Shown: positions 845 to 43,129 of the stretch, piece by piece
Numbering within the stretch: position 1 is the stretch's first letter
Layout of the letters: every line of letters begins with the position of its first letter
Assembly (NCBI GenBank): GCA_903911145.1
Contig: CAIWCD010000020.1
Span: 1 to 50,414 of the forward strand
Reading direction: 5' to 3'
From: an uncultured delta proteobacterium
Lineage (GTDB): Bacteria > Myxococcota > Myxococcia > Myxococcales > 40CM-4-68-19
DNA length: 50,414 nt
Position numbers and translations under genes: made by a program
The notes under the pieces: generated by a model
Told to the model about the DNA's origin: nothing
The model's database searches: none
Seen by the model: the letters and a program-made list of their open reading frames with translations, nothing else

Positions 845-1930
845 ATGAGCCAGCTTCTCCATGGCGCACGCGTCGCGCTCCTGTACGGCCCCGGCAACGT
901 GAACGCCGATTATGCCAATGGCTTGCTCCGTGGAATCGAACGAGGGCTGATGGAGTTGGGGGCTTCGGTCGCAACCCTGAATCTGTCCTTCTTCAAGGGT
1001 GCGATTCGAGGTGGCGATGACGCTTACCCTGACGACTCGCCGCTGGTTGTCGGAATGTCTCGCTTCCTTGAGGAGACCTGGCCGGGTAGTCGAATCGATC
1101 TCTGCTTTGGTCTGTTTCACGATGTCTATTTGCGACCGCGACTGCGTGAGGCGCTTCGCGCGCGCTGCACCCGAGTCGTCAACTATCCGCTCAATCTGCT
1201 CGATCAGCCCCACCGATTCGAGGAAGCACTTGAGTTCTGCGACCTGACTCTCGTCTCCGAGGAAGAGGCCTTTCGGGGCCTGGCGACCCGCTTCGGTCAG
1301 AAGGTTCGCTACACGCCGATGGCATGCGATCCATACATCTTCAGACCGACCGGAGCGCCACGCAATCCGAAGCTCCTATTCGTCGGAAGCCTCTATGCGG
1401 ACCGCCAATGGTTCCTCGATGCATGCGCGCGGCGCATCGACGTCTCCGCGTTCGGCGGGGGCCACGATGTGCCGTCTGTGGTCCGCGGGATCGGCCGAGA
1501 GCTGATCCGCCATCACAAATGGACGTCGCTGCAACAAGCGGCCCGCATGGTCTATCGCGCCGCCGCGCGCGACAGGAGGATCGTCTCCGACGAAGAGGTC
1601 GTCCGGCTCGCCGCGGACCATGGCGTCTCGATCGGGTTCTCCGAGGTCTGGCAGGAGCGGACCGGCCAGCTGCTGCACAAGGTCCGGCTGCGCGAGTACG
1701 AATCGACGATGATGGGACTCTGTCATCTCGCGCGGCGCCTCCCGGAACTCGAGCGCGGATTTGTCGAAGGAAGCGAGATTCTTCTCTATGACTCTCCGGA
1801 GCAGGCGCTGCAGATGCTCGATGGGATCAGTGGCGGCCGGCTCGATTGGCGCGGCATCGGTGCGCGCGCGAGGCTTCGCGCCGAGCGGGACCACACATGG
1901 ACGAGAAGGCTGGAAGCCGCGCTGGGATAG
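845..1930 (+). CDS. CgeB-like glycosyltransferase (GT-B fold)
   Basis: The ATG at 845 (MSQLLHGARVALLYGPG) is preferred because the 28 codons upstream of it do not look protein-like. The 361-residue product has an N-terminal Rossmann-like half beginning ARVALLYGPGNVNADY. The C-terminal half matches the CgeB/Glyco_trans_1_2 pattern: a strand-turn LLFVGSLYADRQWFL near residue 205, then HKVRLREYES and a late helix with RAERDHTWTRRLEAAL. That final WTRRLE-type ending is typical of the family, in which glycosyl groups are moved from nucleotide sugars onto surface glycans or proteins. It is followed 75 bp later by a methyltransferase on the same strand, probably in one operon. The substrate cannot be told. 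Confidence 0.72.
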   Translation: MSQLLHGARVALLYGPGNVNADYANGLLRGIERGLMELGASVATLNLSFFKGAIRGGDDAYPDDSPLVVGMSRFLEETWPGSRIDLCFGLFHDVYLRPRLREALRARCTRVVNYPLNLLDQPHRFEEALEFCDLTLVSEEEAFRGLATRFGQKVRYTPMACDPYIFRPTGAPRNPKLLFVGSLYADRQWFLDACARRIDVSAFGGGHDVPSVVRGIGRELIRHHKWTSLQQAARMVYRAAARDRRIVSDEEVVRLAADHGVSIGFSEVWQERTGQLLHKVRLREYESTMMGLCHLARRLPELERGFVEGSEILLYDSPEQALQMLDGISGGRLDWRGIGARARLRAERDHTWTRRLEAALG

Positions 1931-2005
1931 TGTGCTCACCCACCGTTGCGGGCATTGCAGTGGGCACCGAAACCGCCACCAGGCTGACATGAAGCGGAGC
2001 TGCTG

Positions 2006-3022
2006 ATGAAAGAATCACTGATGCACTACCTGCGTTGCCCCGATTGTCGATCGGAGCTGGCGCTCTCCGTGACCGCTCGTGCCGAGGGGGAGATCGAGTC
2101 CGGCTCGCTCTTGTGCTCGCCATGCGCAGCAACATTTCCGATCCAAGCGTTCATTCCGCGCTTTGTTCCGGAGAGCAACTATGCGGCTAACTTCGGCGCG
2201 CAATGGAAGCGATTCGGAACCACACAGATCGATTCGTTTGCCGGCAACACGATCTCCCGCGATCGATTTCTCGCTACGACCGATTGGTCGGAGAGCTCCG
2301 TCACAGGGAAGGTTATCCTCGATGGCGGCTGCGGAGGCGGTCGATTTGCGGAGGTCGCACTGAGCCTCGGTGCCGAGGTGATCGCGATCGACTTCAGCGC
2401 CGCGATCGACGAGTGCCGCAAGAACCTGCGCTCCTCGAGCCTTCATTGCGTTCAGGCAGACATCGCCAAGCTTCCAATCGCGGATCGGTCCGTCTTCGCC
2501 GCCTATAGCATGGGGGTCCTGCAACACACTCCGGATGTGCGCGCGAGCTTTGCTGGCGTGGCCCGCGTCGTCGCGCCCGGGGGCAGCGTGATCGTCGACG
2601 TCTATGAACTCGGTAAGCTTCGATATTTGAATTCAATCTATTGGTATCGCCCTCTCCTGAAGCATGTGCCTCAGGACGTCCTCTTCGGTGCCGTCGAGCG
2701 CATCGTGACCACGCTGCAGCCGCTCAAGGACAACCTGATGACCCGCTTTCGCGGGCACCCTTTCCTTAGCGTTCTGACTTCGATGGTGATCCCCATCAAT
2801 GCACACCGATATCAATTCCCGTTCCTAAGCCCGGAGCAGGCGCGCGCATGGGCCATCCTGAATACGTTCGATGCCTACTCGCCCACCTACGACCAGCCAC
2901 AGACGCCGGCGACGATGCGCGCTTGGGCGCGCGAGCTGAATCTCGACGGCATCGAAGTATTCACCAAGCCCGGGCATGGCGACGGTACGGCGCTGGTCTG
3001 CCGCGGCGTCATCAAGCGGTAG
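2006..3022 (+). CDS. SAM-dependent methyltransferase with N-terminal Trm112-like zinc ribbon
   Basis: Of 338 residues, the first 55 form a Trm112-like zinc ribbon with C11xxC14 and C37xxC40. A class I methyltransferase domain follows, with motif I VILDGGCGGGRF near residue 105, the motif II acidic strand end VIAIDFSAA, and post-motif GVLQHTPD near residue 170. The C-terminal 120 residues contain a helical insertion often seen in glycan or small-molecule methyltransferases of polysaccharide clusters. Start at ATG 2006. The end overlaps a convergent gene by 11 bases. It probably methylates a sugar or lipid intermediate; the acceptor is unknown. Confidence 0.82.
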   Translation: MKESLMHYLRCPDCRSELALSVTARAEGEIESGSLLCSPCAATFPIQAFIPRFVPESNYAANFGAQWKRFGTTQIDSFAGNTISRDRFLATTDWSESSVTGKVILDGGCGGGRFAEVALSLGAEVIAIDFSAAIDECRKNLRSSSLHCVQADIAKLPIADRSVFAAYSMGVLQHTPDVRASFAGVARVVAPGGSVIVDVYELGKLRYLNSIYWYRPLLKHVPQDVLFGAVERIVTTLQPLKDNLMTRFRGHPFLSVLTSMVIPINAHRYQFPFLSPEQARAWAILNTFDAYSPTYDQPQTPATMRAWARELNLDGIEVFTKPGHGDGTALVCRGVIKR

Positions 3023-3722
3023 CCTTCGCCACGAAGAGCAGGTGCGGCGCGCGATCCGGACGCAGCCTCTCGAAATAGAGGCGCCCAAGCAGGCCCCGCC
3101 CAGCGGTCTGGCGATTGTGCGCGAGCAGCGTGGGCTGCGCAACGACCACCGCGAATCCCGCCTGCACAGCGGCCGACGAGAGCGATTGGACCGTCATGCG
3201 CGCCATATGCTGCATTGGGTGAAAGTGACTACCGCACTCCGGACAGAGCACCTTTGCCCGCTCGAGATCCTCCTGGTGAGGGCATGTGGCGATCAGCAGG
3301 CCTCCGGACTTCAGCGAGCCGCGCAAGTAGGAAAGAAAGCCGACGAGCTGGTCGGGCGCGACGTGCTCGACAACCTCGATTGCCGTCAGGAAGTCGGCCT
3401 TGGGCACATCGGCCGCACCGCTGACGAACGCCCCGAGAAAACCGGGGCGGCCCTGGAGGCGCTTCTGCACCTGCGCGACGCTGTCCTCGGAACTATCAAC
3501 GCCTATCCCGCGATACCCGCGTGAGAGCAGTGCCTCGAGAAAATCTCCCCGTCCGCACCCGAAGTCGAGAACGGTCGCATCAGCCGGCACCCACCGACGG
3601 ATCGCATCCGCGATCGCAAGGCCGTGGTTGGCGCTGAAATATTCGGCCTGCACCGCGGGAATGCGCGAGAGCTTGTTCCAGAAGTCCCGGATCAGCTCGG
3701 GGGTCCAGTTCACTTCATGCAT
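3012..3722 (-). CDS. class I SAM-dependent methyltransferase
   Basis: The start is taken at 3722 (MHEVNWTPELIRDFWNKLS) rather than the longer frame, because that N-terminus is typical of small sugar methyltransferases and the upstream codons look non-coding. The 236-residue product has motif I TVLDFGCGRGDF near residue 50, acidic GIGVDSSEDS, and the post-motif region FLTAIEVVEHVAPDQL near residue 110, as in UbiE/WecE-neighbour methyltransferases. A CPEC pair near residue 160 is a further feature. It lies downstream of the asparagine synthetase-like and GT4 genes on the minus strand and probably ends that three-gene operon. It is convergent with the previous methyltransferase, with an 11-base overlap. 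Confidence 0.8.
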   Translation of the reverse strand: MHEVNWTPELIRDFWNKLSRIPAVQAEYFSANHGLAIADAIRRWVPADATVLDFGCGRGDFLEALLSRGYRGIGVDSSEDSVAQVQKRLQGRPGFLGAFVSGAADVPKADFLTAIEVVEHVAPDQLVGFLSYLRGSLKSGGLLIATCPHQEDLERAKVLCPECGSHFHPMQHMARMTVQSLSSAAVQAGFAVVVAQPTLLAHNRQTAGRGLLGRLYFERLRPDRAPHLLFVAKATA

Positions 3723-3787
3723 GGAAGCTCTCCTTAAAGCGGCGATTGCAGTTCTACCGACACATAGCATTCAGCGGGTATGCCAAG

Positions 3788-4981
3788 TCAGTCGACGCGA
3801 GTTCGAGCGCTGCCGAAGATCGCCAACTTACGTGCAAGCGCCTCGTATTGACGCGTAACCGGCTCCGGACGAAACCGATCGAGCTGCGCATAGGCCGCCT
3901 CTGCGCGTGCCCGCGCCGCGTCGGGATGATCGAGCGCGTCCAGCAATCCCGCGGCAAGCGCGGCGGCATCGTCGACCGGAACCAGCAGCCCGCCCTTCCC
4001 TTCGAGCAGCATCTCCGTCGGCCCGCTCGGGCAGCGGGTCGAGACAATCGGCAGACGCAGCGACATCGCCTCGGTCAGCACGCAGGGCAGGCCTTCCCAC
4101 TCCGACGACATCACCAGCATCGTCGCGCGCGCCATATATCGCCAAGGGTTGCGCTGAAATCCGAGAAAGCGCACGTCGTCTTCAATCCCCAGCGTGCGCG
4201 CCTGCGCTCGGAGCTTCTCGAGATGAATTCCGCGCCCGACGATTGCGAGGCGCGCGGGCCGCTGCCGGCGAACAATCGCGAATGCCTCGAGCAGCAGATC
4301 CTGCCGCTTCTGACGGGAGAGCCGGCCGACGTTGAGAATCAGCGGCCGCTTGGCCCGCTCCTCTTCAGAGAACCACGGATCGTCGACCGGATCGCGCGAG
4401 AGCTTCGCGACCTCTTCCATATCGACGGGGTTGTAGATCAGTTGCACCCGTTCCGCATGAATGCCGTGGTGCTCAATCAGATCGCGGCGACTCTCGTCGG
4501 CGATGCATTTCACCAGATCGGCGCGCTCATTATAGATGCTCGCGAAGTGGCGTCGATAGTACCAACCAAATGCACCGCTAAACGATTCCGGGTCGCGCAA
4601 CGAGGCAGTGACATGCGCGTGTTCTGAAACCGCCAGTCCGAACTTGAGCCCCGAGAGTTTGCGGCCCCAGACGGACGCGAGATTTGAATACGGCACAAAC
4701 GAGATGACCGCGTCAGGCTTGAATTGGCGGAACGCGCGCGCATATCCGGCGATGCGCAGCAGCACGCGAGCGCGCGGGATATCAGGAATCAATCGATCGG
4801 TTTCGATCGATGCATATTCCGGCGGAAATTGATCCGCGAATGCACCTTCGCGCTTATGCAGCAGCATCACCGGTTCGAATTCGGTGCGATCCCAATATTT
4901 CATCAAGCAGCGAACGTCGTGCTGCACGCCGAGATCTTCCAGGTTCGGCACGCAGAGCATCACGCGGATCTTGGTCGTCAT
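3788..4981 (-). CDS. GT4-family glycosyltransferase
   Basis: The 397-residue GT-B protein has the N-terminal nucleotide-fold start KIRVMLCVPNLEDLGVQ. Its acceptor-side region includes FKPDAVISFVPYSN. The GT4 donor domain begins at PLILNVGRLSRQKRQDLLLEAF near residue 215, with the EX7E signature in SEWEGLPCVLTEAMSLRLP near residue 300 and a nucleotide-binding tail SGPTEMLLEGKGG. It should add a sugar to the growing repeat unit at the cytoplasmic face of the membrane. It starts 13 bases after the stop of the amidotransferase gene, so the two are co-transcribed. The specific sugar is not predictable. Confidence 0.87.
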   Translation of the reverse strand: MTTKIRVMLCVPNLEDLGVQHDVRCLMKYWDRTEFEPVMLLHKREGAFADQFPPEYASIETDRLIPDIPRARVLLRIAGYARAFRQFKPDAVISFVPYSNLASVWGRKLSGLKFGLAVSEHAHVTASLRDPESFSGAFGWYYRRHFASIYNERADLVKCIADESRRDLIEHHGIHAERVQLIYNPVDMEEVAKLSRDPVDDPWFSEEERAKRPLILNVGRLSRQKRQDLLLEAFAIVRRQRPARLAIVGRGIHLEKLRAQARTLGIEDDVRFLGFQRNPWRYMARATMLVMSSEWEGLPCVLTEAMSLRLPIVSTRCPSGPTEMLLEGKGGLLVPVDDAAALAAGLLDALDHPDAARARAEAAYAQLDRFRPEPVTRQYEALARKLAIFGSARTRVD

Positions 4982-7020: not shown

Positions 7021-8142
7021 ATGCGTGTCGCCTTCCTCAGCAACTATCCGGTCCCCTACCAGCGCGAACTGCTCGAAGCGATTGAGGCTGCGGGGAAGAT
7101 CGAGATGCATCCGTTCTTCCTCGCAGCGCGCGATCCGTCGCGACACTGGCCGGACGAACGGGCGATCGCCCGAGCCCGCATCCCGCGCTCGTTCGGGCTG
7201 CGCGGAGCGCCCGAGGAGCTGCGCGTTCATCCGACGCTGGCGGTCGATCTGCTGCGCACGCGGGCCGACGTCACCATCGTCTGCGGCTATTCGCACGCCG
7301 CCTTCCAGCTCGCGATCGGCGCGCTCACGCTCGCGCGAAGGCCCTTCGTCGTCTGGTCCGAGCTGCCGAGGATTCACCAAGGGAGCGCCTCGATCCGTCT
7401 CGCGCGGCGGGCGCTGATCGCTCCGCTCAATCGCTCGCGCGGACTGCTCGCAATCGGCTCGCGCGCCGCCGAGACGTGGCGCACCGTCCTCGACCGACCG
7501 GTGCCGGTGGTGAACTTCCCCTACAGCTGCAACGTCGAGCGCTACACCGCGATCGAGCGCGGCCCGCGCGCTCCGGGCAGGTTCACGTTCCTCTTCTCCG
7601 GCCAGCTCATTGAGCGCAAAGGAGTCGACGTCCTGCTGCGCGCGTTCATTGCCGCCTGCGCGACGCGCGAGGATCTCAATCTCCGACTCGCCGGCGATGG
7701 CCCGCAGCGCGCAGAGCTGGAAGCGATGGTTCCCGAGCAGCTCCGCGCACGCGTGACGTTTCTCGGATTCGTACCGTGGGAGCGCCTCCCCGAAACCTAC
7801 GCGTCGGCCGATGCGCTGGTGATTCCATCGCGCCACGACGGATGGGCGCTGGTCGTCAACGAGGCGCTCGCGGCAGGCCTGCCCGTCATCGCCAGCGAAG
7901 CGGTCGGAGCCGCGGTTGACCTCGTGCGCGAGGGAACGACTGGGTATCGCGTCGCCACCGAGGACGTCGGCGCGCTCCGCGACGCGCTGCTGCGGATCCC
8001 CGAGACAGCAGAGGCCATGGGAGCTGCGGGGAGGAAGCTCGTGGTTGGACTCGCGCCCGTAGCGGCAGCTGAGCGGCTGTACGAGATTCTACAGGCGGCG
8101 ATGCGCGGAGAGCTGCGCGACCGGCTCGGTCCCGTCCCGTGA
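7021..8142 (+). CDS. GT4-family glycosyltransferase
   Basis: Start at ATG 7021 (MRVAFLSNYPVPYQRELLEA), where GT4 homology begins; the long upstream extension of this frame runs antisense to the amidotransferase gene. The 373-residue product has the short-chain GT4 opening, then a donor domain with FLFSGQLIERKGVDVLLRAF near residue 190 and PSRHDGWALVVNEALAAGLPVI near residue 275, which holds the EX7E-type acidic pair. The gene is transcribed divergently from the amidotransferase across a 103-bp spacer that must contain both promoters. Its stop overlaps the next gene by 4 bases (GTGA), so translation is coupled. Confidence 0.86.
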   Translation: MRVAFLSNYPVPYQRELLEAIEAAGKIEMHPFFLAARDPSRHWPDERAIARARIPRSFGLRGAPEELRVHPTLAVDLLRTRADVTIVCGYSHAAFQLAIGALTLARRPFVVWSELPRIHQGSASIRLARRALIAPLNRSRGLLAIGSRAAETWRTVLDRPVPVVNFPYSCNVERYTAIERGPRAPGRFTFLFSGQLIERKGVDVLLRAFIAACATREDLNLRLAGDGPQRAELEAMVPEQLRARVTFLGFVPWERLPETYASADALVIPSRHDGWALVVNEALAAGLPVIASEAVGAAVDLVREGTTGYRVATEDVGALRDALLRIPETAEAMGAAGRKLVVGLAPVAAAERLYEILQAAMRGELRDRLGPVP

Positions 8143-9176
8143 AGATTCTCGTCGCCGGCGACTTCGCGCACCAGATCTACGAGCCGGACTTCTGCGCCGG
8201 CCTGCGCGAATGCGGCGCGGTCGTCAGCGAGTTCCGCGCGCTCGCGCTGTTCGGCCCGACCGATCTGCTCCGCCGTGCGCAGAGCAAGCTTCTCGTCGGC
8301 CCGGGCATCGCGCTCGCCAACGCGGCGCTGATCGCAAAGTGCCTGCGCGAAAAGCCCGACGTCGTCCTCTGCTGGCGCACCTGCTGGCTGCATTCGGCGA
8401 CCATCCGCGCGATGCGTCTCGCCGGTGCGCAGCGCGTGGTGCTCTACAACAACGACGATCCCTTCGGTCCCGATCGCGAGGCGCTGCGCTGGCGACGCTT
8501 TCGCCGCCTCATTCCGGCAGCGGATCTCTGCTTTGCCTACCGCCGCGCGAACCTCAGCGAATATCGCGAAGCCGGCGCGCGCGAGGTCAAGCTCTTGCGC
8601 TCTTGGTATCGGAGAGAGGTTCACCACCCGGTCGCGCTGAGTGCCGCGGACCACGCCCGTTTCGACTGCGACGTCGTCTTCGTCGGCCACTGCGAGCCCG
8701 ATGAACGGCTCGACCTGATGGATGCGCTGCTCGCGAGCGGCTTGAACGTCAAGCTGTTCGGCACCGACTGGCAAGCGCATGCGCGCGGGCGGCGGTGGGA
8801 GCGAATGAAGATCGAGCCGGTGATCGGCGCGGACTACGTGAAAGCGATCGCGGCGGCGAAGGTCGCGGTTGTGTTCCTCTCGAGGAGAAATCGCGATCAA
8901 TACACGCGCCGATGCTTCGAGATCCCGGCCATCGGCACGCCGATGCTTGCGCCGCGCACGCAGGAGATGCAGGCGCTTTTTGCCGAGAGGAGTGAGGTCG
9001 CGCTCTACGCCAGTGCCGAGGAGCTGCTCGCGACGGCTCGGGCGCTGATCTCCGATCCGTCGCGCCGCGAACGCATGTCGGCCGCTGCGCACGCGCGCGC
9101 CGTGCACGATGGCTACGATGTCGTCGGACGCGCGCGGCAATTCCTCGCGGACCTCGAGGGCGCGGATCTGAGGTAG
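8139..9176 (+). CDS. CgeB-like glycosyltransferase
   Basis: The GTG start at 8139 overlaps the preceding stop as GTGA. The 345-residue product begins MKILVAGDFAHQIYEPDF and keeps the CgeB-type layout. The central DVVFVGHCEPDERLDLMDALL (near residue 180) opens the second Rossmann half. The YTRRCFEIPAIGTPMLAPRT region near residue 260 corresponds to the conserved R-x-FEIPACG block of this family, and a late RERMSAAAHARA-x-HDGY tail follows. Together with the CgeB-like gene at 845, the cluster has two such enzymes. Role: transfer of a sugar within the surface-glycan pathway. Acceptor unknown. Confidence 0.8.
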   Translation: MKILVAGDFAHQIYEPDFCAGLRECGAVVSEFRALALFGPTDLLRRAQSKLLVGPGIALANAALIAKCLREKPDVVLCWRTCWLHSATIRAMRLAGAQRVVLYNNDDPFGPDREALRWRRFRRLIPAADLCFAYRRANLSEYREAGAREVKLLRSWYRREVHHPVALSAADHARFDCDVVFVGHCEPDERLDLMDALLASGLNVKLFGTDWQAHARGRRWERMKIEPVIGADYVKAIAAAKVAVVFLSRRNRDQYTRRCFEIPAIGTPMLAPRTQEMQALFAERSEVALYASAEELLATARALISDPSRRERMSAAAHARAVHDGYDVVGRARQFLADLEGADLR

Positions 9177-13231: not shown

Positions 13232-15027
13232 ATCCGCTCCGCTTCATCCGCACCGTCGAGCAGATGAACGTGGGGCAGGCGACCGCGCGCATCAAGCACG
13301 AGCTCTGGCTGCGCACGCGGAGAAAGCGCAGCTGGGCCGCGCTGGGAGCGGACGGGGAGGCCTACTCCATCCAGCGCGACGCTCGCGTCACGCACGTCAG
13401 CGAAGAGCTGGTGCGCCTCAACCGGCTCGCGGATGAGTGGCTGGCGGGTGTCGTCGAGCACGTCGGGATTGCCGGCCAGACGCGCGATTGGAGCGGCATC
13501 GGCAAGCCGAAGCTCTGGCGCTACGAGAAGCACTATCACTCCGAGTTGGTGGCGCTCGCCGCGCGCGCGCACGCAGAGCCAAACGGGCCGTGGGTGCAGG
13601 CTGCGCACGATCTTCAAGAGTCGTGGGCGACCGCGAACCCTCCTGAAAAAGGAGACGCGTGGGAGCCGTACCCGACGGCGCGACGCATTCTCAGCACGGC
13701 TGAGGCGGTCGCGATCGAGCCCGCGATCGCCACTGCGCAGACGGCCACGCAGCTCGCCATCCAGCTCAAGCATCTCGCGCAGCACCTCGAGCATCATCTG
13801 CGCGGCAATCACCTGATCTGCGACGCGGCCGCGCTCTGTGCGGGCGGCGCGGTGCTCGCAGGGCCCGAGGGCGAGGCCGCGATGAAGCTCGGCGCACCGC
13901 TGCTCGAGAAGGAGCTCGCGGCCCAGCTCCTCCCCGACGGCGGCTACGCGGAGCGGACCGTGCAGTACCACGCGCTCGTGATGAAGGACGCGCTGCTGGC
14001 GCTCGAGCTGTCGCGAACGCGATCCGCCGAGCTGCGCCCGCGCATCGATGAGCTGCTCGGCAAGATGGCGCTCTGGCTGTGGCGCTCGCGCAGACCCGAC
14101 GGCACCTGGCCGCTCGTCAACGACGCCGTCCCGCTGGCGTTCTCCTTCGCGCGCGAAGCGCTCTCGCGCGCCGAGATGCTGCATCTCTTCGCCGCGCCGA
14201 CCCCGTTGCCCAACGTCGAGCTGCTCGACACTGGCTGGACGTTCGTGCGCGACGTCGGCACCGAGCTCTTCTTCGACACCGGCATGATCGGCCCGCGCGA
14301 TCAGCCCGGCCACGGACACGCCGACTCGCTCGCCTACGAGCTGCGCTGGTCGGGCGTGCCCGTCGTCACCGACTCGGGCGTCACCACCTACGAGCGAAAC
14401 GACGTGCGCACGTTCGAGCGCTCCGCACCCGCGCACGCGACGATCTCGGTCGATGGATTCGGCATCGACGAGGTCTGGGCGTCGTTCCGCGTCGGCGGCC
14501 GGGGCAAGACGGAAAAGGTTGCTACACCAACGATCGATCCGCGCGTCCGCTTCCTGCGCGGTCGCGCGCAATCGTTCCGTGGATTCATCCACGAGCGCAC
14601 TCTCTGTTTCTGGCCCACGCGCGCGCTGCTCGTCTTCGATCGCGTGCTGCATACGAAGAGCGGCGCGCGCATCCTCTCGCACGTTCCGCTTGCCTGCGGC
14701 TGGAGCGCGGCAGAGGCAAGCGGCGCGCTCTTTCTGCTCGGCCCGGGTGCGCGCGGGCTGCAGCTGCACGTTCTGACCGGCTCGATCGCCGGGATGGCCA
14801 GAGGCGTCGAGAGTCCGCGCGATGGCTGGGAGAGCCACGGATTCGGCGACGCGCAGGCGCGCACCAGCATCTCTCTCGCGGCCGACGCGAGCGGACTCTG
14901 CGGCTACGTCATCCTCGCGCCAGGAGTGACGACGCGGCAGACGACGCAGGGGCTCGCACTGCGGGCGCCCGGCGCGGAGATCGCGCTGCGGCTCGAGAAC
15001 GGAGTCCCGTGCGCATCCTCTACCTGA
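13228..15027 (+). CDS. heparinase II/III-like polysaccharide lyase family protein
   Basis: The GTG start at 13228 overlaps the preceding stop. The 599-residue product has an N-terminal alpha/alpha-toroid region (about residues 40-330), including HLRGNHLICDAAALCAGG and LPDGGYAERTVQYHALVM. A heparinase II/III beta-sandwich domain follows, with PGHGHADSLAYELRWSG near residue 358 and DSGVTTYERND, which carry the conserved His, Asp and Tyr-type positions of the family. No clear signal peptide is visible, so it may act in the cytoplasm or on lipid-linked material, unlike secreted lyases. It is coupled to the bi-domain dehydrogenase upstream and overlaps the next GT4 gene by 19 bases. It may be an epimerase- or lyase-like modifier of uronate-containing glycans. 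Confidence 0.83.
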   Translation: MNPLRFIRTVEQMNVGQATARIKHELWLRTRRKRSWAALGADGEAYSIQRDARVTHVSEELVRLNRLADEWLAGVVEHVGIAGQTRDWSGIGKPKLWRYEKHYHSELVALAARAHAEPNGPWVQAAHDLQESWATANPPEKGDAWEPYPTARRILSTAEAVAIEPAIATAQTATQLAIQLKHLAQHLEHHLRGNHLICDAAALCAGGAVLAGPEGEAAMKLGAPLLEKELAAQLLPDGGYAERTVQYHALVMKDALLALELSRTRSAELRPRIDELLGKMALWLWRSRRPDGTWPLVNDAVPLAFSFAREALSRAEMLHLFAAPTPLPNVELLDTGWTFVRDVGTELFFDTGMIGPRDQPGHGHADSLAYELRWSGVPVVTDSGVTTYERNDVRTFERSAPAHATISVDGFGIDEVWASFRVGGRGKTEKVATPTIDPRVRFLRGRAQSFRGFIHERTLCFWPTRALLVFDRVLHTKSGARILSHVPLACGWSAAEASGALFLLGPGARGLQLHVLTGSIAGMARGVESPRDGWESHGFGDAQARTSISLAADASGLCGYVILAPGVTTRQTTQGLALRAPGAEIALRLENGVPCASST

Positions 15028-22296: not shown

Positions 22297-22502
<206 letters not shown>

Positions 22503-22588
22503 CTGGAGAGTGCGCGAGTTTGGCGCTGAGCCATGGCCGGAACTAAGCACCCCCAAATTGGCGGGCGGTGGCACAAGTTCACCTTCAA

Positions 22589-22739
22589 CGGCTCATCCCA
22601 GCCCGCGCGGGGAACACGGGTCTGCATTGAACCCGACCAACGAGTCATTCGGCTCATCCCTGCCTGCGCGGGGAACACCCGGGCTTCAGTGCGCCAATGA
22701 GAGTGAGTTCCGGCTCATAGCTGCTGACCGGGGCGCTTG
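22589..22739. CRISPR. short type I-E-like CRISPR remnant (2 repeats, 1 degenerate repeat, 2 spacers)
   Basis: Two 29-base repeats at 22589-22617 and 22650-22678 share CGGCTCATCCC and GCGCGGGGAACAC and differ at few internal positions. A third, degenerate unit begins at 22711 with CGGCTCAT and keeps CTGC and CGGGG. The two spacers (22618-22649 and 22679-22710) are exactly 32 bases, giving a strict 61-base period. The repeat closely resembles type I-E repeats of GC-rich bacteria (CGG-TCATCCCCGC-GCGGGGAACAC form). No cas genes are present in the window. Orientation is uncertain: the repeat sequence suggests minus-strand transcription, while the decayed unit is on the right. Confidence 0.75.
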
Positions 22740-22987
22740 ACGGCCGCGCAGATCGTCGGCACTCCGCTGCTCTTTTGAAGCTCGTGCAGTGACGGAAATA
22801 CGTTCGCGTAGTAGTGCGACGAGGTTCTGGTCGCCGTCGGCCGCAGCAAGAACAAGGTGCCGCCAAAGGCTCGCCCGCTGACGTCAACCCGACCGGTCCG
22901 CTGCGAGAAAATCGACGTGTCCACGCACACGCGGCTCCACGTCTGATAGTCATCGGCTGTAGACTGATAAGCATCATGGGTGAGCAT
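22715..22987 (-). CDS. possible small protein divergent from the controller-type HTH gene
   Basis: A minus-strand frame with a possible ATG at 22987 encodes about 90 residues. It contains WSRVCVDTSIFSQRTG, SGRAFGGTLFLLRP and SSHYYANVFPSLHELQKSSG, which read like folded protein and not shadow sequence. It starts inside the 5' end of the opposite HTH gene and ends in the degenerate CRISPR repeat. No family is recognised. It may be a remnant of a larger gene cut by the array region. Confidence 0.35.
   Translation of the reverse strand: MLTHDAYQSTADDYQTWSRVCVDTSIFSQRTGRVDVSGRAFGGTLFLLRPTATRTSSHYYANVFPSLHELQKSSGVPTICAAVKRPGQQL
22941..22971. promoter_or_regulatory. paired CTGATA boxes upstream of the HTH gene (candidate controller operator)
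   Basis: GTCTGATAGTC at 22941-22951 and GACTGATAAGC at 22962-22972 carry CTGATA in the same phase, 21 bp (two helical turns) apart. They end 4 bases before the ATG of a controller-type HTH gene. C-boxes of restriction-modification controllers have a similar size, spacing and place, which suggests autoregulation. Not proven. Confidence 0.4.
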
Positions 22988-23230
22988 CTTTCCACCGTGA
23001 GTTCGACATACCTCCAGTGCTTTGGTGGCCGGATGCGCGCAGAGCACGACCGGTTCGGAGTGTCGCAAGAGGAAATCGCGGATCGAGCGGCGATGCACCG
23101 GACTTACCTTGGGGGCCTCGAGCGCGGCGAGAGGAACGTGGGTCTGCTGAACCTCATCCGCACCGCCCGAGGGCTGCGGGTATCGCCGACAGTGCTGCTC
23201 AAGGACTTCGAATCGAGGAGCACCCGATGA
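22976..23230 (+). CDS. XRE/controller (C)-type helix-turn-helix protein
   Basis: The 84-residue product (ATG 22976) is almost only an HTH domain: FGVSQEEIADRAAMHRTYLGGLERGERN covers helices 2-4, followed by VGLLNLIRTARGLRVSPTVLLKDFE. The HRTYxGGxERGERN core and this size match restriction-modification controller proteins. No Shine-Dalgarno is visible, and a leaderless transcript is usual for such genes. The stop overlaps the next start as ATGA, the tight C-then-R arrangement of type II systems. It probably controls itself and the downstream nuclease-like gene. Confidence 0.78.
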   Translation: MGEHLSTVSSTYLQCFGGRMRAEHDRFGVSQEEIADRAAMHRTYLGGLERGERNVGLLNLIRTARGLRVSPTVLLKDFESRSTR

Positions 23231-24771
23231 CGGTCGAGTTACGAAGGGTAGAGCTGTGGTGTGACAGTTTTCATGAGGGAGCCTGGGCTGCGGAAGGAAT
23301 CCTCAAGCAGTGGCCGAAGGCCATCGTCACGCGAAGCCATCGGCTCGGCTTCATCCCGCAGTACTCGGTGCAGCTCGGACAGGTGCGGCTCGAACTCGAA
23401 GTCTTCGGAGGGTATGGGAACTGGAGCGACCTGCCGACGAAGATCCGGGAACTTCTTGACTGGGGGAAGCCAGATATCGTGGTGTACGACCGTTCAGCCG
23501 ACACCGTGCTCTTCGCTGTCGAAGAGACCGCGGCGGTGCCGACGGGCAACCAAGCGCTTCAGCGCTGTGAGAGAATGCACGGCGCCGGCACGATGAAGGT
23601 CCCGTTCTGGTACCTCCTGAGTCAATTCGGCACCCACGTAGACGAAGGAACACGCCAAGCGTCTCCGTGGCCTGCGCTGATGGCTGTTGCGCTTACTGCG
23701 ACCTTTCGCACGCCCAACATCGTGCTCTTGTACTCGTCGGAAGCATCCCCCGAGGACTACGCGGCAGGCGAAGGGATGGTGCAGCTCTTCCGCATGCTCG
23801 CCAAGATGCTGGAGAACTACGCAACGACAAGGAAGCTGCTCGACGGACTTGATGCCGAACTCACTAGTCACTTCGCGTCGATGCTTCGGTTCATCGGCGA
23901 GACATATGCCAATGTGACCGACTTCCTTCCGCGCGCGGAGTTGCTTGCCGACCCTGCAACCGCCTCAAGGCTGGCCGGGATCGCGTCGGGATCGGACGGA
24001 GGAAGAACGTCCTTCCCGTTGCTCGATTGGCCCAAGTTCAAAGAACTGCCTGCGGCATTTCGGAAGAAGCAAACGGAGGGGACCTTTATCAAGACCGACC
24101 CCTTCCTCGCCCGGCTGGAGGCAGGGCGAGAAACGGGAAACGTATACACGCTCTCAGGAAACGCAGGTTCGCGACCACAGCCCGAGAACGATCTGAAGTC
24201 GTGGATCGACCAGCAGCGGAAGCTCCACGCTGGAGCTCAGGCGCTCAGCCCGCCGGTCGAATTCAAGCTCAAGCTCGACGACTTTCCAGAGAGCAATTCG
24301 GGGCTTCGGCACGTGACGATGGAAGCGATCATCGAGAAGCGCGGCAAAACGATCGCGGCGACCGATCGCGCGGTGCGGGGTCATCGAAAGGCCTGGCTCC
24401 TCCACTGGTTGTTGCAGAGCACGCGGGGATCGACGGCAGTAAGCTGGGCGGTGGCCTCGCGGAGAAGATGGCGCCCGCACTTGGTTGAACCCTGCTGGCT
24501 TTCCGAGGGGAGAGTGCCAGCGAATGCGCGCTTCCGAGCCGGACGGCGGACGAGCATGACCGCCCGCGCTCAGGATGATCGATCGCCCGCGGTTCTGAAT
24601 GATCGCTTCCAACAAGACCCATGTCGCGCGCTGTCGATAAGCCTCGTTGATCATCTTGAGCGGATATTTCATGCTTCTCCTTCGTCAACTTCGCTCGCTG
24701 ACAGCGAACGGATTAACAGGGCCAATACGAATCCGGGCACAGCAGATCGGTGTAACCGCTCGACACGGTGA
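23227..24771 (+). CDS. possible PD-(D/E)xK restriction-like nuclease, probably frameshifted near 24410
   Basis: The frame starts at ATG 23227, overlapping the HTH stop. The N-terminal third has a restriction-fold look: beta strands VRLELEVFGGYGNW, then GKPDIVVYDRSADTVLFAVEE (near residues 83-103) followed by TAAVPTGNQALQRCERM. PD-x-E-x-T would be a variant of the PD-(D/E)xK nuclease site, lacking the usual Lys. The middle is helical. After HRKAWLLHWLLQ (about 24413) the frame turns Arg/Trp-rich and loses protein character. A +1-shifted frame continues sensibly as AEHAGIDGSKLGGGLAEKMA and stops at 24486-24488. I infer a single-base indel, so the real protein (about 420 residues) should end at 24488. 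No methyltransferase partner is nearby. Confidence 0.6.
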   Translation: MTVELRRVELWCDSFHEGAWAAEGILKQWPKAIVTRSHRLGFIPQYSVQLGQVRLELEVFGGYGNWSDLPTKIRELLDWGKPDIVVYDRSADTVLFAVEETAAVPTGNQALQRCERMHGAGTMKVPFWYLLSQFGTHVDEGTRQASPWPALMAVALTATFRTPNIVLLYSSEASPEDYAAGEGMVQLFRMLAKMLENYATTRKLLDGLDAELTSHFASMLRFIGETYANVTDFLPRAELLADPATASRLAGIASGSDGGRTSFPLLDWPKFKELPAAFRKKQTEGTFIKTDPFLARLEAGRETGNVYTLSGNAGSRPQPENDLKSWIDQQRKLHAGAQALSPPVEFKLKLDDFPESNSGLRHVTMEAIIEKRGKTIAATDRAVRGHRKAWLLHWLLQSTRGSTAVSWAVASRRRWRPHLVEPCWLSEGRVPANARFRAGRRTSMTARAQDDRSPAVLNDRFQQDPCRALSISLVDHLERIFHASPSSTSLADSERINRANTNPGTADRCNRSTR

Positions 24772-24792: not shown

Positions 24793-25398
24793 TCATTTCG
24801 GAGACCATGGCGGTGTCGGCGGTCGCCTGGTTGGGGGATGAAGGCGGCGCACATTGGACCTCGGAGGCAAAGAGGGAGGAACGATCACATTGTCGACAAT
24901 GCAGTACGAATAGGGATTGATGGCGTCACTGGGATGTGGAGTGCTGGCCTGAGCTTCGCGACGAATTGCCCTCGCCATCGCAGGCATGAGTTCTGCCACT
25001 AGCTGTGCACGGCGTCCGGCATCGGCAGTTCTTCTTCCCCCGCCGGTTGCTTTGAGAATCGCGAAGCGGTCCATTTCGAGTGCGACACGCAACTCTTCGC
25101 GTGCTCGGGCCAGCTCTTGGCCTGTGCCCCACTCATGCTCGTCAGTGTTCTCGCCGATCCTCGAAACGGGCGGGAGGTTCGCTAGCGTTAAGACGCCGCG
25201 TTCTAGCGTCACCTCAATCGACATCCGGAGGCCGTGCGACAGAAGTTGTCGCTGATAGCCTGCAACTCGGTAGCGAAGAAACTCAGCAATCGATACGGAT
25301 GCTCGAACAGCACAGCGTGCGTCCCACCAAGCGGAGAGCCAGTTGCGCTTCAGGAGTGACGTGCCGCAGCCGGATTTCTTGGCAGTGAATACCGTCAT
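24793..25398 (-). CDS. hypothetical protein, third gene of the island minus-strand operon
   Basis: The 201-residue product begins MTVFTAKKSGCGTSLLKRNW. It has a beta-rich middle (SIEVTLERGVLTLANLPPVS) and a helical segment (ELARAREELRVALEMDRFAI), and ends in a Pro/Arg-rich tail that is probably disordered. No signal peptide, membrane span or known motif is visible. The start lies 18 bases after the stop of the TolB-like membrane protein gene, so the two are co-transcribed. Its stop at 24793 faces the nuclease-like gene. Function unknown. Confidence 0.55.
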   Translation of the reverse strand: MTVFTAKKSGCGTSLLKRNWLSAWWDARCAVRASVSIAEFLRYRVAGYQRQLLSHGLRMSIEVTLERGVLTLANLPPVSRIGENTDEHEWGTGQELARAREELRVALEMDRFAILKATGGGRRTADAGRRAQLVAELMPAMARAIRREAQASTPHPSDAINPYSYCIVDNVIVPPSLPPRSNVRRLHPPTRRPPTPPWSPK

Positions 25399-25416
25399 AG
25401 AGATTCTCCCCTCTCG

Positions 25417-26481
25417 CTATTCTGCGTTTGCGTGATCGCGAACCAGCGTCGCGACGGCTTGCTCAAGCGCGGCGTCCAGAGAAACTGTTCGATTCCCATA
25501 GGCAGCGGCTCCACCAATCAGCTGTGCCGACGCTGCATCGTGGAGCTGAAGAGTGAGCGCGAACTGCTTACCGATGATCCGGAGGTCTCCTGAGACAACA
25601 TCGTCTGCGCCGATCTTTCGCGCGGTATCGATATCTCCGTCGCCCTCAAGTTCGTTTAGTTCGCGGCCACCAGCCAGTGCCACGACATTTTCGCGCGTCG
25701 TTACCTTTGCCGTAGGCGCACTCTGCGCGAGGAGAATCCTCACGCGGTCCGTCAGGTGTTTCGCGAGCTGAAGATTGCGCGAGGTCTGGTCCCGGAACTC
25801 AAGTACCGCAACGAACTTGCTATCGAGCAAGTGCCCGGCAGAGGTGACCGATCCGCCGGACACAGTATCGGCAGGAGCGGCTCCCCGCAGCACCAAGGGC
25901 TCCGCAGAAGTGTGGTGCAGGTTCGTTAGTTGTTCTTGGCCATCCGCACTGGACGGTTGTCCTTGCCTGGCGACAATTCCTCCTATCGCTGCGAGCAGGC
26001 CCAGGCTCGCGCATGCAAAGAACACGGCCCTGCCGATCTTCCTCGGCGGGTTGATGTCCGCAGATACCTGACGCCCAACCGTATTCTCGGTGGCGACAGC
26101 CGGAGTACGCCGACGCGCTCCCCCTCCGGCAAAGTGCTCGCAGATTGCCCATTGGCCGAACAGGGCGCGCCAATCGTCGCGTGAGTAAGTGCGCGGAGAT
26201 TTCCAGTGGGGCGCGCTCGGCTCCTGGCTTGCGGCCGATACGATTAACGTGTCGAGACCGACCTGGTGCGAACCAACTCTGGTGCCGGCCCTTTCGCGCG
26301 CAACCAAGCGAAAGAGGCCGGCGACATCCATGCGGTCGCTGCGGCCGCCGTTAATCACGAGCGTGCGGGCCGCATTCGCGTAGGTGATTCTCTCGTGATG
26401 AGCAAGGAGGTGCTCGAGCAAGCCCGCGCACGTCTGCGTCTCCGTCGCGTGCGGGCCATTCGCGAGCAAGGCGCTCTTCAT
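25417..26481 (-). CDS. single-pass membrane protein with possible winged-helix N-terminus and TolB/CsgG-like C-terminal domain
   Basis: Of 354 residues, the first 110 contain LLEHLLAHHERITYANAART and a later GLDTLIVSA then HWKSPRTYSRDDWRALFG. This resembles the small winged-helix-like domains found beside phage and defence genes (weak). One membrane helix spans about 151-171 (AVFFACASLGLLAAIGGIVA). Residues 218-350 (SKFVAVLEFRDQTSRNLQLA, KVTTRENVVALA, ARKIGADDVVSGDLRIIGKQ) match the TolB-N/CsgG-type fold found outside the membrane in CadC-like sensors. The layout suggests a membrane sensor with a cytosolic effector or DNA-binding end. Its start overlaps the XRE gene stop by 4 bases. Confidence 0.62.
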   Translation of the reverse strand: MKSALLANGPHATETQTCAGLLEHLLAHHERITYANAARTLVINGGRSDRMDVAGLFRLVARERAGTRVGSHQVGLDTLIVSAASQEPSAPHWKSPRTYSRDDWRALFGQWAICEHFAGGGARRRTPAVATENTVGRQVSADINPPRKIGRAVFFACASLGLLAAIGGIVARQGQPSSADGQEQLTNLHHTSAEPLVLRGAAPADTVSGGSVTSAGHLLDSKFVAVLEFRDQTSRNLQLAKHLTDRVRILLAQSAPTAKVTTRENVVALAGGRELNELEGDGDIDTARKIGADDVVSGDLRIIGKQFALTLQLHDAASAQLIGGAAAYGNRTVSLDAALEQAVATLVRDHANAE

Positions 26482-27296
26482 GTTGCACCCTGCCCCGCGC
26501 GGAATGGTGTCATCGCATCGCGGACGCCGCGACCACGCGCCTCTGGATGCACGAGCGCGTCCTTGAGAGGAAACACGGCCAAGCAGCTAAACAGCTCCCC
26601 CGGCGAACTCGCGATGCTTCCACGCTGCGTGCGATAGCCGAAGTCGCGGAGGCGCCGCCCCAGAGCGGAATCGGCCTTCACGAATCGAAGGACAGGCGGC
26701 AGCGCAGGGAAATCGGCGAACTTCTTACGGCGTGACTTACGGAGTTTGTACCAGCGGAGCGGCTCACCGTTGTGGCAGAGCAGAATGCGCTGACCAGGCG
26801 CGAGGCGAGCCAGGTAATCAGGTCGATTCCCAAGCGCGTCGAGCAGTGGGCGGCAGAGGATTCCGGCGTCTGCCATTGCGAGCGTATTTGCCGCGTCCGC
26901 GCGTGCGCCGTTGGCCCAATACACCCATGCTGTCGGTCGGTGGAGACGCCCCACGAGGTCGCGGACTCGATCGCGTCCGTCTCGCCGTGCATCACCGTTT
27001 GCACGAACAGTGCGATGCGCGTGAGCCGCGAGACTCTCGTGCTCCGCGGGAGGAGACTCGCTCATCGAGAGGCCGTCGTGCAGAGCCACGAGGGTTCTCT
27101 CCAGATCGCTCAACCTGCACTCGAGCAGGAGCCGGATGACGCGCTGGAGGGCCGGAGGCCACTCCTCGTCCTTGGTCTCCAAGCGCGTCAGCGACTTAGG
27201 CGCAATCCCGAGCAAGCGTGCCATCTGCGCCTGCGTCAGCCCGAGGGCTTGGCGGGTCTGTGCAGCGAGCTTGCCGTGTGTCGTTTGCGCGTCCAT
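26478..27296 (-). CDS. XRE-family HTH protein with uncharacterised C-terminal domain
   Basis: The start is chosen at 27296 (MDAQTTHGKLAAQTRQALGL), where the HTH begins; the frame runs further upstream but across a palindromic operator. Residues 8-60 are an XRE HTH (LGLTQAQMARLLGIAPKSLTRLE). Residues about 110-272 form an unrecognised domain with VYWANGARADAANTLAMADA and APGQRILLCHNGEPLRWYKL, whose strand pattern is loosely reminiscent of PUA/EVE-type domains. It is the first gene of a three-gene minus operon with the membrane TolB-like protein and an unknown, and it probably autoregulates through the palindrome at 27334-27352. Confidence 0.7.
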   Translation of the reverse strand: MDAQTTHGKLAAQTRQALGLTQAQMARLLGIAPKSLTRLETKDEEWPPALQRVIRLLLECRLSDLERTLVALHDGLSMSESPPAEHESLAAHAHRTVRANGDARRDGRDRVRDLVGRLHRPTAWVYWANGARADAANTLAMADAGILCRPLLDALGNRPDYLARLAPGQRILLCHNGEPLRWYKLRKSRRKKFADFPALPPVLRFVKADSALGRRLRDFGYRTQRGSIASSPGELFSCLAVFPLKDALVHPEARGRGVRDAMTPFRAGQGAT

Positions 27297-27333
27297 GGCG
27301 GGAACATATCGGTCGCAGAGTCCTCTCGCCATT

Positions 27334-27352
27334 AGGTCACGATGTGTGACCT
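27334..27352. promoter_or_regulatory. palindromic operator AGGTCAC-N5-GTGACCT
   Basis: Perfect 7-base arms at 27334-27340 and 27346-27352 are separated by GATGT, 38 bp upstream of the XRE gene start, in the 288-bp divergent spacer facing the Nmad-like pair. The size and symmetry suit a dimeric HTH regulator. The rest of the spacer (27353-27584) shows no clear gene. Confidence 0.6.
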
Positions 27353-27584
27353 CAAACGGGAGCACGGCATGCTGCTTTGTGAACCAAAGGCGCGTCGAGT
27401 CTTTGCCAGACACGCTCGCGAGCCATCGCGTCCGTGCGACCATGATTGTTGACGAGTTGAGCAACTTCATCGAGACGGAGGCGTCGACGAGCCGCCACGC
27501 TTGCGGCGCTTGAGTGGCCGCCGTCGATCCGTCCCCCTCGCCGAGCGGGCGCGACACAGCGGTGCGCGACGCATTCTCGAGAAG

Positions 27585-28337
27585 ATGGCATCCTGCCCCC
27601 ATGAGCCCACGCCTTCACGCTGGTTCACGGTGAAGGGGTACCTCGTCCGGGTCGGCGTTGACCAAGCGTACGGTCAATGGAACGCGCCCGTGGACCCGGA
27701 CACTCTCGACTTCGCCTACGTACCGATTCCGGACGGTGCCCAGCATCCGCGCCTGGCGACGCCATACGCGAGCATCGTGGGTACCCTGGCCCGTTTCCCT
27801 GGGGTGCACATGCCTGCGGGGCTGCTGGGCAAGTCAATGCACCTCGACCCAGACTTCAAACACCTGACATACGGCGACAACGGCGCGCGCCGAGGCCGCG
27901 GCGTGGCGAGCCTCGACACTGGTGACTTCATCGCCTTCTTCTCCAGCATGCGACCGACGCGCGAGTGCGATCATACGCTCCTCTACGCGCTGATCGGCTT
28001 CTACAGGGTGCGCGAGGTCGTTTGGGTGAAGGACGTTCCATCGCGCCGCTGGGGCGAGAACGCACACACTCGCCGGCTCAGCCATTCAGAAACCGACGTC
28101 ATCATCCGCGCGGATCCTGCATCGAGCGGTCGGCTGCGTCGGTGCATCCCCATTGGCGAATGGCGCAACCGATCCTATCGCGTCCGGACCTCCCTTCTGG
28201 AGCGATGGGGGCATCTGTCCTGCCGAGACGGCTTCATCCAGCGCAGCGCCGTTCCACCATCGTTTCTAGACCCGGCACGATTTATCGAGTGGTTCGAGGA
28301 GCAGGGCCCGGAACTCCTCGCAACAAACAACCCGTAG
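27585..28337 (+). CDS. Nmad3-like (nucleotide modification-associated) domain protein
   Basis: The start is probably ATG 27585, close to the first conserved strand YLVRVGVDQAYGQWNAPVD. The 250-residue product shows the layout I associate with nucleotide-modification-associated domain 3: FAYVPIPDG (near residue 45), MHLDPDFKHLTYGDNGARRG (near 85-105), SLDTGDFIAFFSS, and TLLYALIGFYRVREVVWVKD. Such domains were defined from gene neighbourhoods of modified-base systems and resemble sensors or readers of modified nucleotides. The last third has WRNRSYRVRTSLLERWGHLS. It is followed 9 bases later by a partner gene. The family assignment is from memory of the pattern, so moderate. Confidence 0.6.
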   Translation: MASCPHEPTPSRWFTVKGYLVRVGVDQAYGQWNAPVDPDTLDFAYVPIPDGAQHPRLATPYASIVGTLARFPGVHMPAGLLGKSMHLDPDFKHLTYGDNGARRGRGVASLDTGDFIAFFSSMRPTRECDHTLLYALIGFYRVREVVWVKDVPSRRWGENAHTRRLSHSETDVIIRADPASSGRLRRCIPIGEWRNRSYRVRTSLLERWGHLSCRDGFIQRSAVPPSFLDPARFIEWFEEQGPELLATNNP

Positions 28338-29010: not shown

Positions 29011-29316
29011 TCACCGGTGCGAAATCAGGTCGAGCTGTAGCCGCGCGCCCAGCGCCATCGCGATGCGCTCGAGGAGGTCGAGCTTCGGGACTGCCTTACC
29101 GGCCTCGATGCGCGCGATGGACGCCTGCCCCGTCCCCGCACGCTCGGCCAGCTCGACCTGGGAGAGCTTGCGACGCGCGCGCAGAGCGCGGACCTGCCGA
29201 CCCAGACCGAGTTGCTGCACGCGCGCTTCCACCTTGGCGTTGAAGCCCGGCTCCTTGGCGTCACGCTCTGCGATGAGGTCTTCGATGGTCAGCTTGCTGA
29301 TGTGTTTGCGGCTCAT
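29011..29316 (-). CDS. HigA-like XRE antitoxin
   Basis: Start at 29316 (MSRKHISKLTIEDLIAERDA). The 101-residue product has an N-terminal extension that can fold over the toxin, then an XRE HTH at about residues 38-92: LRARRKLSQVELAERAGTGQASIARIE followed by KLDLLERIAMALG. It follows the toxin gene by 13 bases on the minus strand, the toxin-first order typical of HigBA pairs. It should neutralise the toxin and repress the promoter at 29664-29692. Confidence 0.85.
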   Translation of the reverse strand: MSRKHISKLTIEDLIAERDAKEPGFNAKVEARVQQLGLGRQVRALRARRKLSQVELAERAGTGQASIARIEAGKAVPKLDLLERIAMALGARLQLDLISHR

Positions 29317-29329
29317 ATGATCTCTCCCG

Positions 29330-29656
29330 TCAGTCCTTGCCGAGCGTCTCTCGCATCCGCTTCCGTGCAACCTCGAGTTCGCGCGGCGGAGCCTTCTGGC
29401 CCTGCTTCTTGTAGGCGTGGAGCAGCACCATCTCTGGCCCCGTCACCACGATGTAGAACACGCGGTCGATCGAAAACTTCAGCTCCCAGAGCTTGCCCTC
29501 GATGTGCCGCGCCTTCACCTCCGCGCCTTCGAGTCCATTCAGGCCGAGATCCTTCAATGCCGCATAGACAGGCTCGGCTCGATCGGTCGGCAGCTCGCGG
29601 AGGTAATCCGCAACCGGCACCCGCCCTGACGCGCTGACGTAGAACCGAATCTTCAC
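29330..29656 (-). CDS. HigB-like (RelE superfamily, Gp49-type) toxin
   Basis: The 108-residue product opens MKIRFYVSASGRVPVADYLR. It continues with VYAALKDLGLNGLEGAEVKA, GKLWELKFSIDRVFYIVVTG and VLLHAYKKQGQKAPPRELEVA, the typical Gp49/phage-derived RelE-like fold of HigB toxins that cut mRNA on the ribosome. Arg/Lys/Tyr positions near the C-terminus fit the basic active face. The first gene of the toxin-antitoxin unit. A strong promoter ends so close to the ATG that the transcript may be leaderless. Confidence 0.86.
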   Translation of the reverse strand: MKIRFYVSASGRVPVADYLRELPTDRAEPVYAALKDLGLNGLEGAEVKARHIEGKLWELKFSIDRVFYIVVTGPEMVLLHAYKKQGQKAPPRELEVARKRMRETLGKD

Positions 29657-29907: not shown

Positions 29908-30082
<175 letters not shown>

Positions 30083-30226
30083 CCTTGAGCGGTTGCGTAT
30101 TGGCGCGTGACGAGGTTCTGGCAGGCACGCGCGCAGCGGGCCTCGGGTACAACAGCAACTGATCATCGCGCCGGGCTCATCATGGTTGCTGACGAAGCAG
30201 CCCGAAAGCGGCAGGTGATGTCTGAA

Positions 30227-33555: not shown

Positions 33556-33590
33556 CCTGACGGAGAAATCCGAAAGGGGCGCGGCCTTCG
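33556..33590 (+). repeat. third, partial copy of the tRNA-Pro terminator repeat
   Basis: CCTGACGGAGAAATCC and the following GGGGCGCGGCCTTCG match 29968-30002 at 34 of 35 positions (A for G at 33573). The left arm of the hairpin is absent, so it cannot fold like the other two copies. Flanking sequence is unrelated. Confidence 0.7.
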
Positions 33591-42844: not shown

Positions 42845-43129
42845 ATGTCTGAGATGCGTTTCGCATGCCCACTTCGTCCGGTGCAGGCCGCTCGCCCAAT
42901 CTTGTGGGCCCTGCTGCTCGCGCTGTTCGCGGCGGTCGATGATTCCGAGCACGATCTCGACGCGATGAGTGGCGCGAGAAGATCGACACGGTTCATCCAG
43001 GCGACACGCCTGCCGCAGCGCGCGAAAGAGAAGATGCCGGACAAAACGGAGGCGCTGCGTGCCATCACCGGGTCAGCAGTTGGCCGAACTGCGGCAGTGA
43101 TCGCGCGGCGCGACTCGATCCGCGGCTGA
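42845..43129 (+). pseudogene. decayed, internally deleted copy of the gene at 45412
   Basis: The frame retains three blocks of the 168-residue protein encoded at 45412-45918. These are a leader with AARPILWALLLALF (against AARAIFCALLCGML), the stretch AVDDSEHDLDAM, and a tail AKEKMPDKTEALRAIT ending IRG. Between them about 50 codons are missing and one short stretch (GARRSTRFIQATRLPQR) reads in a shifted frame of the intact gene. It is therefore a tandem duplicate that decayed. Confidence 0.65.

What the first reader, a model, noticed from the sequence alone, without database searches (positions are those of the whole stretch)
22589..22739. Orphan two-spacer type I-E-like CRISPR remnant inside the island
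Two 29-base repeats and a degenerate third keep a strict 61-base period with 32-base spacers, the type I-E geometry. The repeat sequence resembles known type I-E repeats. No cas gene lies nearby, so it is a relic, a solo array used by cas genes elsewhere, or a carried mini-array of the kind some mobile elements use against rivals.
Basis: partly seen in the sequence, partly recalled or inferred. Interest (0 to 1): 0.72.

Follow-up and report, generated by a model that had tools for sequence, protein, structure and literature searches.

The report
Decayed orphan type I-E CRISPR mini-array
A tiny, genuine piece of a bacterial immune memory array (two repeats, two spacers and a worn third repeat) sits at the edge of a tRNA-flanked DNA island in a genome without the matching immune genes, so it is most likely an inert fossil that came in with the island.

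Summary
Two 29-nt repeats (27/29 identical) lie 61 nt apart with 32-nt spacers. A third unit in exact register keeps the 8-nt crRNA handle and little else. The same repeat core in other genomes is almost always a type I-E array of period 61, so this is real CRISPR sequence.

It is an orphan. The 5.3-Mb, 99%-complete genome has no other copy of the repeat and no Cas1, Cse1 or Cas6e. No genome held of its own family (12) has Cse1. Neither spacer matches phages, plasmids, viral contigs or 195 genomes of the phylum.

It shows decay. Both repeats have lost the same stem base pair (C9-G18; G18 is kept in 675 of 687 comparison repeats). The leader-side repeat is degenerate and no leader or promoter was recognised.

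It lies 216 bp past tRNA-Pro(CGG), inside a 7.6-kb segment bounded by a 176-bp, 94%-identical direct repeat of the tRNA 3' half. The cargo is a C-protein plus type II endonuclease gene without a recognised methylase, a toxin-antitoxin-like pair and an Nmad3 protein. No integrase was recognised.

Best reading: an inert relic carried in by the island. A mini-array for use in hosts with type I-E Cas is possible but unsupported. Modest interest.

The parts
22589..22617 (-). Repeat R1; in crRNA orientation GTGTTCCCCGCGCGGGCTGGGATGAGCCG, stem pair C9-G18 broken (T at position 18)
22618..22649 (-). Spacer S1, 32 nt (AATGACTCGTTGGTCGGGTTCAATGCAGACCC in crRNA orientation); no protospacer found
22650..22678 (-). 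Repeat R2; GTGTTCCCCGCGCAGGCAGGGATGAGCCG, the same stem pair broken (A at position 18)
22679..22710 (-). Spacer S2, 32 nt (GAACTCACTCTCATTGGCGCACTGAAGCCCGG); no protospacer found
22711..22739 (-). Degenerate repeat R3 (leader side if transcribed like other I-E arrays); 8-nt handle ATGAGCCG intact, hairpin lost
22297..22373 (+). tRNA-Pro (CGG), likely integration site
22328..22503 (+). Left direct repeat: tRNA 3' half, terminator and downstream DNA
29908..30083 (+). Right direct repeat, 94% identical over 176 bp, first 63 bp identical
22976..23230 (+). XRE-type control (C) protein gene of a restriction system
   Evidence: PADLOC Control_protein, E 3e-15
23227..24771 (+). Type II restriction/nicking endonuclease-like gene; only residues 8-364 match the 488-position model
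   Evidence: PDLC03392, E 2e-84
24793..27602 (-). Three reading frames (24793-25398, 25417-26481, 26478-27602 with an XRE domain); relatives of all three lie together on contig C26 of the same genome
27501..28337 (+). Nmad3 (nucleotide-modification-associated) protein gene; the 5' start is uncertain
   Evidence: PF18754, E 8e-21
29011..29656 (-). Gp49/HigB-like toxin and HTH antitoxin-like pair

Best explanation
This is a decayed fragment of a type I-E CRISPR array that arrived as passenger DNA at the edge of a 7.6-kb tRNA-Pro-associated island and now does nothing in this host. In a cell with type I-E Cas proteins, the minus strand would read R3-S2-R2-S1-R1. Cas6e would cut each hairpin 8 nt before the spacer, and the crRNAs would load into Cascade. 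Shown here: repeat identity, geometry, orphan status, island setting and stem damage. Inferred: arrival with the island, former function and present inertness.
For: The repeat core occurs in 26 stretches of other genomes, nearly all period-61 arrays with several to dozens of repeats. The genome has no Cas1, Cse1 or Cas6e, and cas3_core gives only hits below its cut-off of the kind the control genomes also give. None of the 12 genomes held of its family has Cse1, against 7 of 142 in the order. Position 18 of the repeat is G in 675 of 687 comparison repeats but T in R1 and A in R2, weakening the predicted hairpin from -15.6 to -9.4 kcal/mol. R3 has lost its hairpin. No sigma-70-like promoter, and the flank does not resemble the I-E leaders printed. 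No spacer match. The neighbouring endonuclease gene matches its model only in part and no methylase was recognised, which suggests the island itself is eroding.
Against: R1 and R2 are otherwise well preserved and the 61-nt register is exact, which argues for recent arrival or some constraint. Two different changes at the same stem position are somewhat unlikely under random decay. That the array came with the island, rather than inserting later, is not shown: no relative carries the same island and no empty site was found.
Confidence: 0.66

Rival explanations
1. A working mini-array carried by the mobile island: in hosts that have type I-E Cas proteins its two crRNAs would direct Cascade and Cas3 against rival elements or phages, and it is merely idle in this cas-less host.
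For: One to two spacers, no cas genes, on an integrated element with other defence-type cargo, as described for virus-borne mini-arrays (PMC6858448, PMC11656645). Type I-E with similar repeats exists in the same order.
Against: No protospacer; no recognised leader or promoter; both hairpins carry a stem mismatch; the repeat is not identical to the order's arrays (CCGTTCCCCGCG... there); no second copy of the island is known.
Confidence: 0.2
2. An RNA anti-CRISPR (Racr-like) decoy: the stem-altered repeats bind host Cas6e or Cascade into non-productive complexes and protect the island from type I-E immunity.
For: Repeat mimics on mobile elements inhibit type I-E (PMC10651486); both repeats are altered at the same hairpin position.
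Against: Racrs are solitary repeat units, often directly behind a promoter; here there are two repeats with spacers of exact 32-nt length and no promoter was found. The published screen set aside full repeat matches within 100 bp as arrays.
Confidence: 0.07
3. Not CRISPR at all: a chance or generic intergenic repeat.
For: Very short, no cas genes, no spacer matches.
Against: The repeat core is found elsewhere almost only in I-E arrays; exact 32-nt spacing; a third unit in register; 0 expected by shuffling.
Confidence: 0.03

Closest known systems
Orphan CRISPR arrays on plasmids and other mobile elements (PMC9071438)
   Same: Short array, typable repeat, no cas genes nearby, mobile-element setting; decay is one explanation proposed there for such arrays
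   Different: Here on an integrated, tRNA-flanked segment, and no Cas1, Cse1 or Cas6e anywhere in the genome
Virus-borne mini-CRISPR arrays (SPV1/SPV2, PMC6858448)
   Same: One or two spacers, no cas genes
   Different: Those have leaders with promoters, repeats like the host's own arrays, and spacers that match related viruses; none of this was found here
Type I-E arrays of the same order (G015, G023) and of Belnapia, Corynebacterium, Rothia
   Same: 29-nt repeat, 61-nt period; R1 differs from the Belnapia repeat only at position 18
   Different: Those are long and hold G at position 18; in G015 and G023 the array lies near a Cse1 gene
Racr solitary repeat units (PMC10651486)
   Same: CRISPR repeat without cas genes in a mobile setting
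   Different: Two regularly spaced repeats with full-length spacers; no promoter found

Membership tests
Type I-E CRISPR array | 29-nt repeat of the GTGTTCCCCGCGC..GC.GGGATGAGCCG kind ending in an 8-nt ATGAGCCG-type handle | tested here: met
   handle intact in R1, R2 and R3
Type I-E CRISPR array | 32-nt spacers, 61-nt period | tested here: met
   comparison arrays have period 61
Type I-E CRISPR array | Intact repeat hairpin | tested here: not met
   C9-G18 pair broken in R1 and R2 (-9.4 against -15.6 kcal/mol); hairpin absent in R3
Type I-E CRISPR array | Leader upstream of the first repeat | tested here: not met
   no resemblance by eye to the leaders printed; no promoter
Type I-E CRISPR-Cas system | cas genes (Cas3, Cse1, Cas6e, Cas1) in the genome | tested here: not met
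   cas3_core only below cut-off
Mobile-element mini-CRISPR array acting against rivals | 1-2 spacers, no cas genes, on a mobile element | tested here: met
   mobility is inferred from the direct repeats only, no integrase recognised
Mobile-element mini-CRISPR array acting against rivals | Spacers match related viruses or elements | tested here: not met
Racr (RNA anti-CRISPR) | Solitary repeat unit | tested here: not met
   two full repeats 61 nt apart; definition from PMC10651486
Racr (RNA anti-CRISPR) | Inhibits CRISPR interference when expressed | not testable with these tools
   needs a laboratory assay

The most novel reading that the evidence does not exclude
The island carries a two-unit decoy array whose repeats are both altered at the same hairpin pair under selection, so that its RNA binds but is poorly processed by type I-E Cas6e or Cascade in hosts that have them: an array-shaped RNA anti-CRISPR.
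Probability: 0.05. Interest if true: 0.6.

Novelty: new member of a known kind. Interest (0 to 1): 0.27.

Why it matters
It adds a small, well-bounded case of CRISPR sequence outliving its cas genes on a tRNA-associated island. If it proved active, it would show cas-less islands carrying guides or decoys for use in other hosts. As it stands it is a relic, useful mainly as a warning that a recognisable I-E repeat does not mean an I-E system.

Tried and rejected
Spacer targets: the only viral-contig seed hit (L061) matches 20 of 32 nt and the non-seed half diverges, as chance would give; phage and plasmid hits were partial with E of 3 or more in the rows shown. A regulator in this host (CreA- or CreR-like guide): considered and rejected, since the effector genes are absent and neither spacer matches elsewhere in the genome with up to 3 mismatches. 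Guide of a CRISPR-associated transposon: considered only; no Tn7-like gene was recognised among the island proteins scanned. Insertion-sequence origin of the flank beside R1: no plasmid match. Empty-site proof: tRNA-Pro contigs of the relatives hold no relatives of the window's flanking proteins, so no empty site could be read. Island relatives: only partial gene-level matches in the order; no plasmid or viral relative of the endonuclease.

Full report
Observation. The window (contig C20, 50,414 bp, of a 5.3-Mb genome in 53 contigs, 98.96% complete) holds two 29-nt repeats at 22589-22617 and 22650-22678, 27 of 29 identical, with a 61-nt start-to-start distance and hence 32-nt spacers. Shuffled sequence gives none and the genome has no other copy within 3 mismatches. 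A third unit at 22711-22739 is in exact register but matches only 15-16 of 29 without gaps. Its certain part is the 8-nt ATGAGCCG handle, which ends only 5 of 50,385 minus-strand positions; the hairpin part alone is no better than chance. No further units lie at the next registers.

Identity. The repeat core with three free positions was found in 26 stretches of public genomes. Nearly all are arrays with a 61-nt period, in Corynebacterium, Rothia, Belnapia, Flaviflexus, Pseudomonas and others; an 8-kb stretch of one uncultured proteobacterium holds a single repeat, and two records with identical DNA hold a small array of three repeats. R1 differs from the Belnapia repeat only at position 18. 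In G015 and G023 of the same order, the positions of the array and of Cse1 fix the direction: repeats read GTGTTCCCC...ATGAGCCG away from the cas side. The window array would therefore be read on the minus strand, with R3 on the leader side.

Orphan status. Cas1, Cse1 and Cas6e are absent from the genome; cas3_core gives only sub-threshold hits, as it does in control genomes without a Cas3 match over the cut-off. Cse1 is found in 7 of 142 genomes of the order and in none of the 12 held of the window's own family. The repeat is absent from the rest of the family with up to 3 mismatches, apart from two 3-mismatch hits of different sequence.

Decay. In 687 comparison repeats position 18 is G in 675. 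R1 has T and R2 has A there, so the fourth pair of the stem is lost in both, and the predicted folding energy weakens from -15.6 to -9.4 kcal/mol. R3 cannot form the hairpin. No sigma-70-like promoter was found between 22374 and 23000 (GC-rich organisms may use others), and the sequence before R3 does not resemble the leaders printed. That two different changes hit the same position is mildly surprising and is the only hint of something other than plain decay.

Spacers. No convincing match was found in phage or plasmid records, in viral contigs with seed and 3'-half patterns or in 195 genomes of the phylum with up to 3 mismatches.

Surroundings. tRNA-Pro(CGG) lies at 22297-22373. Its 3' half, terminator and following DNA (22328-22503) recur at 29908-30083, 94% identical over 176 bp with the first 63 bp exact: the footprint of site-specific integration into the tRNA, or of a duplication there. 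The array starts 216 bp after the tRNA. The segment holds a C-protein gene and a type II endonuclease-like gene, three reading frames whose relatives lie together on contig C26 of the same genome, an Nmad3 protein and a Gp49-like toxin with an HTH partner. No integrase or methylase was recognised. Other genomes of the family also hold separated 3' fragments of this tRNA, in G006 on one contig about 6.4 kb from the full tRNA, so the site seems to be used repeatedly; no integrase was seen among the G006 island proteins scanned.

Verdict. A genuine but tiny and damaged type I-E array fragment on a tRNA-associated island, most likely an inert relic. The carried-weapon and decoy readings are possible, unsupported and testable.

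Noticed in passing
33556-33590: A third copy of the tRNA-Pro terminator region (35 bp, 94-97% identical to the other two) lies 3.6 kb beyond the right direct repeat, suggesting a second, older insertion or duplication at the same tRNA.
   Followed up: partly
L076 (contig C26 of the same genome), 1772-4294: Relatives (55-73% protein identity) of the three island frames 24793-27602, next to a DUF2779 protein and a CARF/Csx1-like protein (7421-8623), though the genome has no Cas1.
   Followed up: partly
L035 and L041 (identical 8-kb stretches), about 2760-2913: Another small I-E-like array of three repeats, one with a damaged hairpin, in uncultured proteobacteria; cas genes in the stretch were not looked for.
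   Followed up: no
L044, 1169-1197: A single, perfect I-E repeat in an 8-kb stretch of an uncultured proteobacterium, a possible solitary repeat unit (Racr candidate).
   Followed up: no
G006:C34 (L082), 8112-8157 and 14559-14693: tRNA-Pro and a 46-bp copy of its 3' part about 6.4 kb apart, so the same tRNA seems to be an island site in a related genus.
   Followed up: partly
42928-43127 and 45582-45916: Three blocks of direct repeats (40-110 bp, 80-92% identical) about 2.7 kb apart.
   Followed up: no
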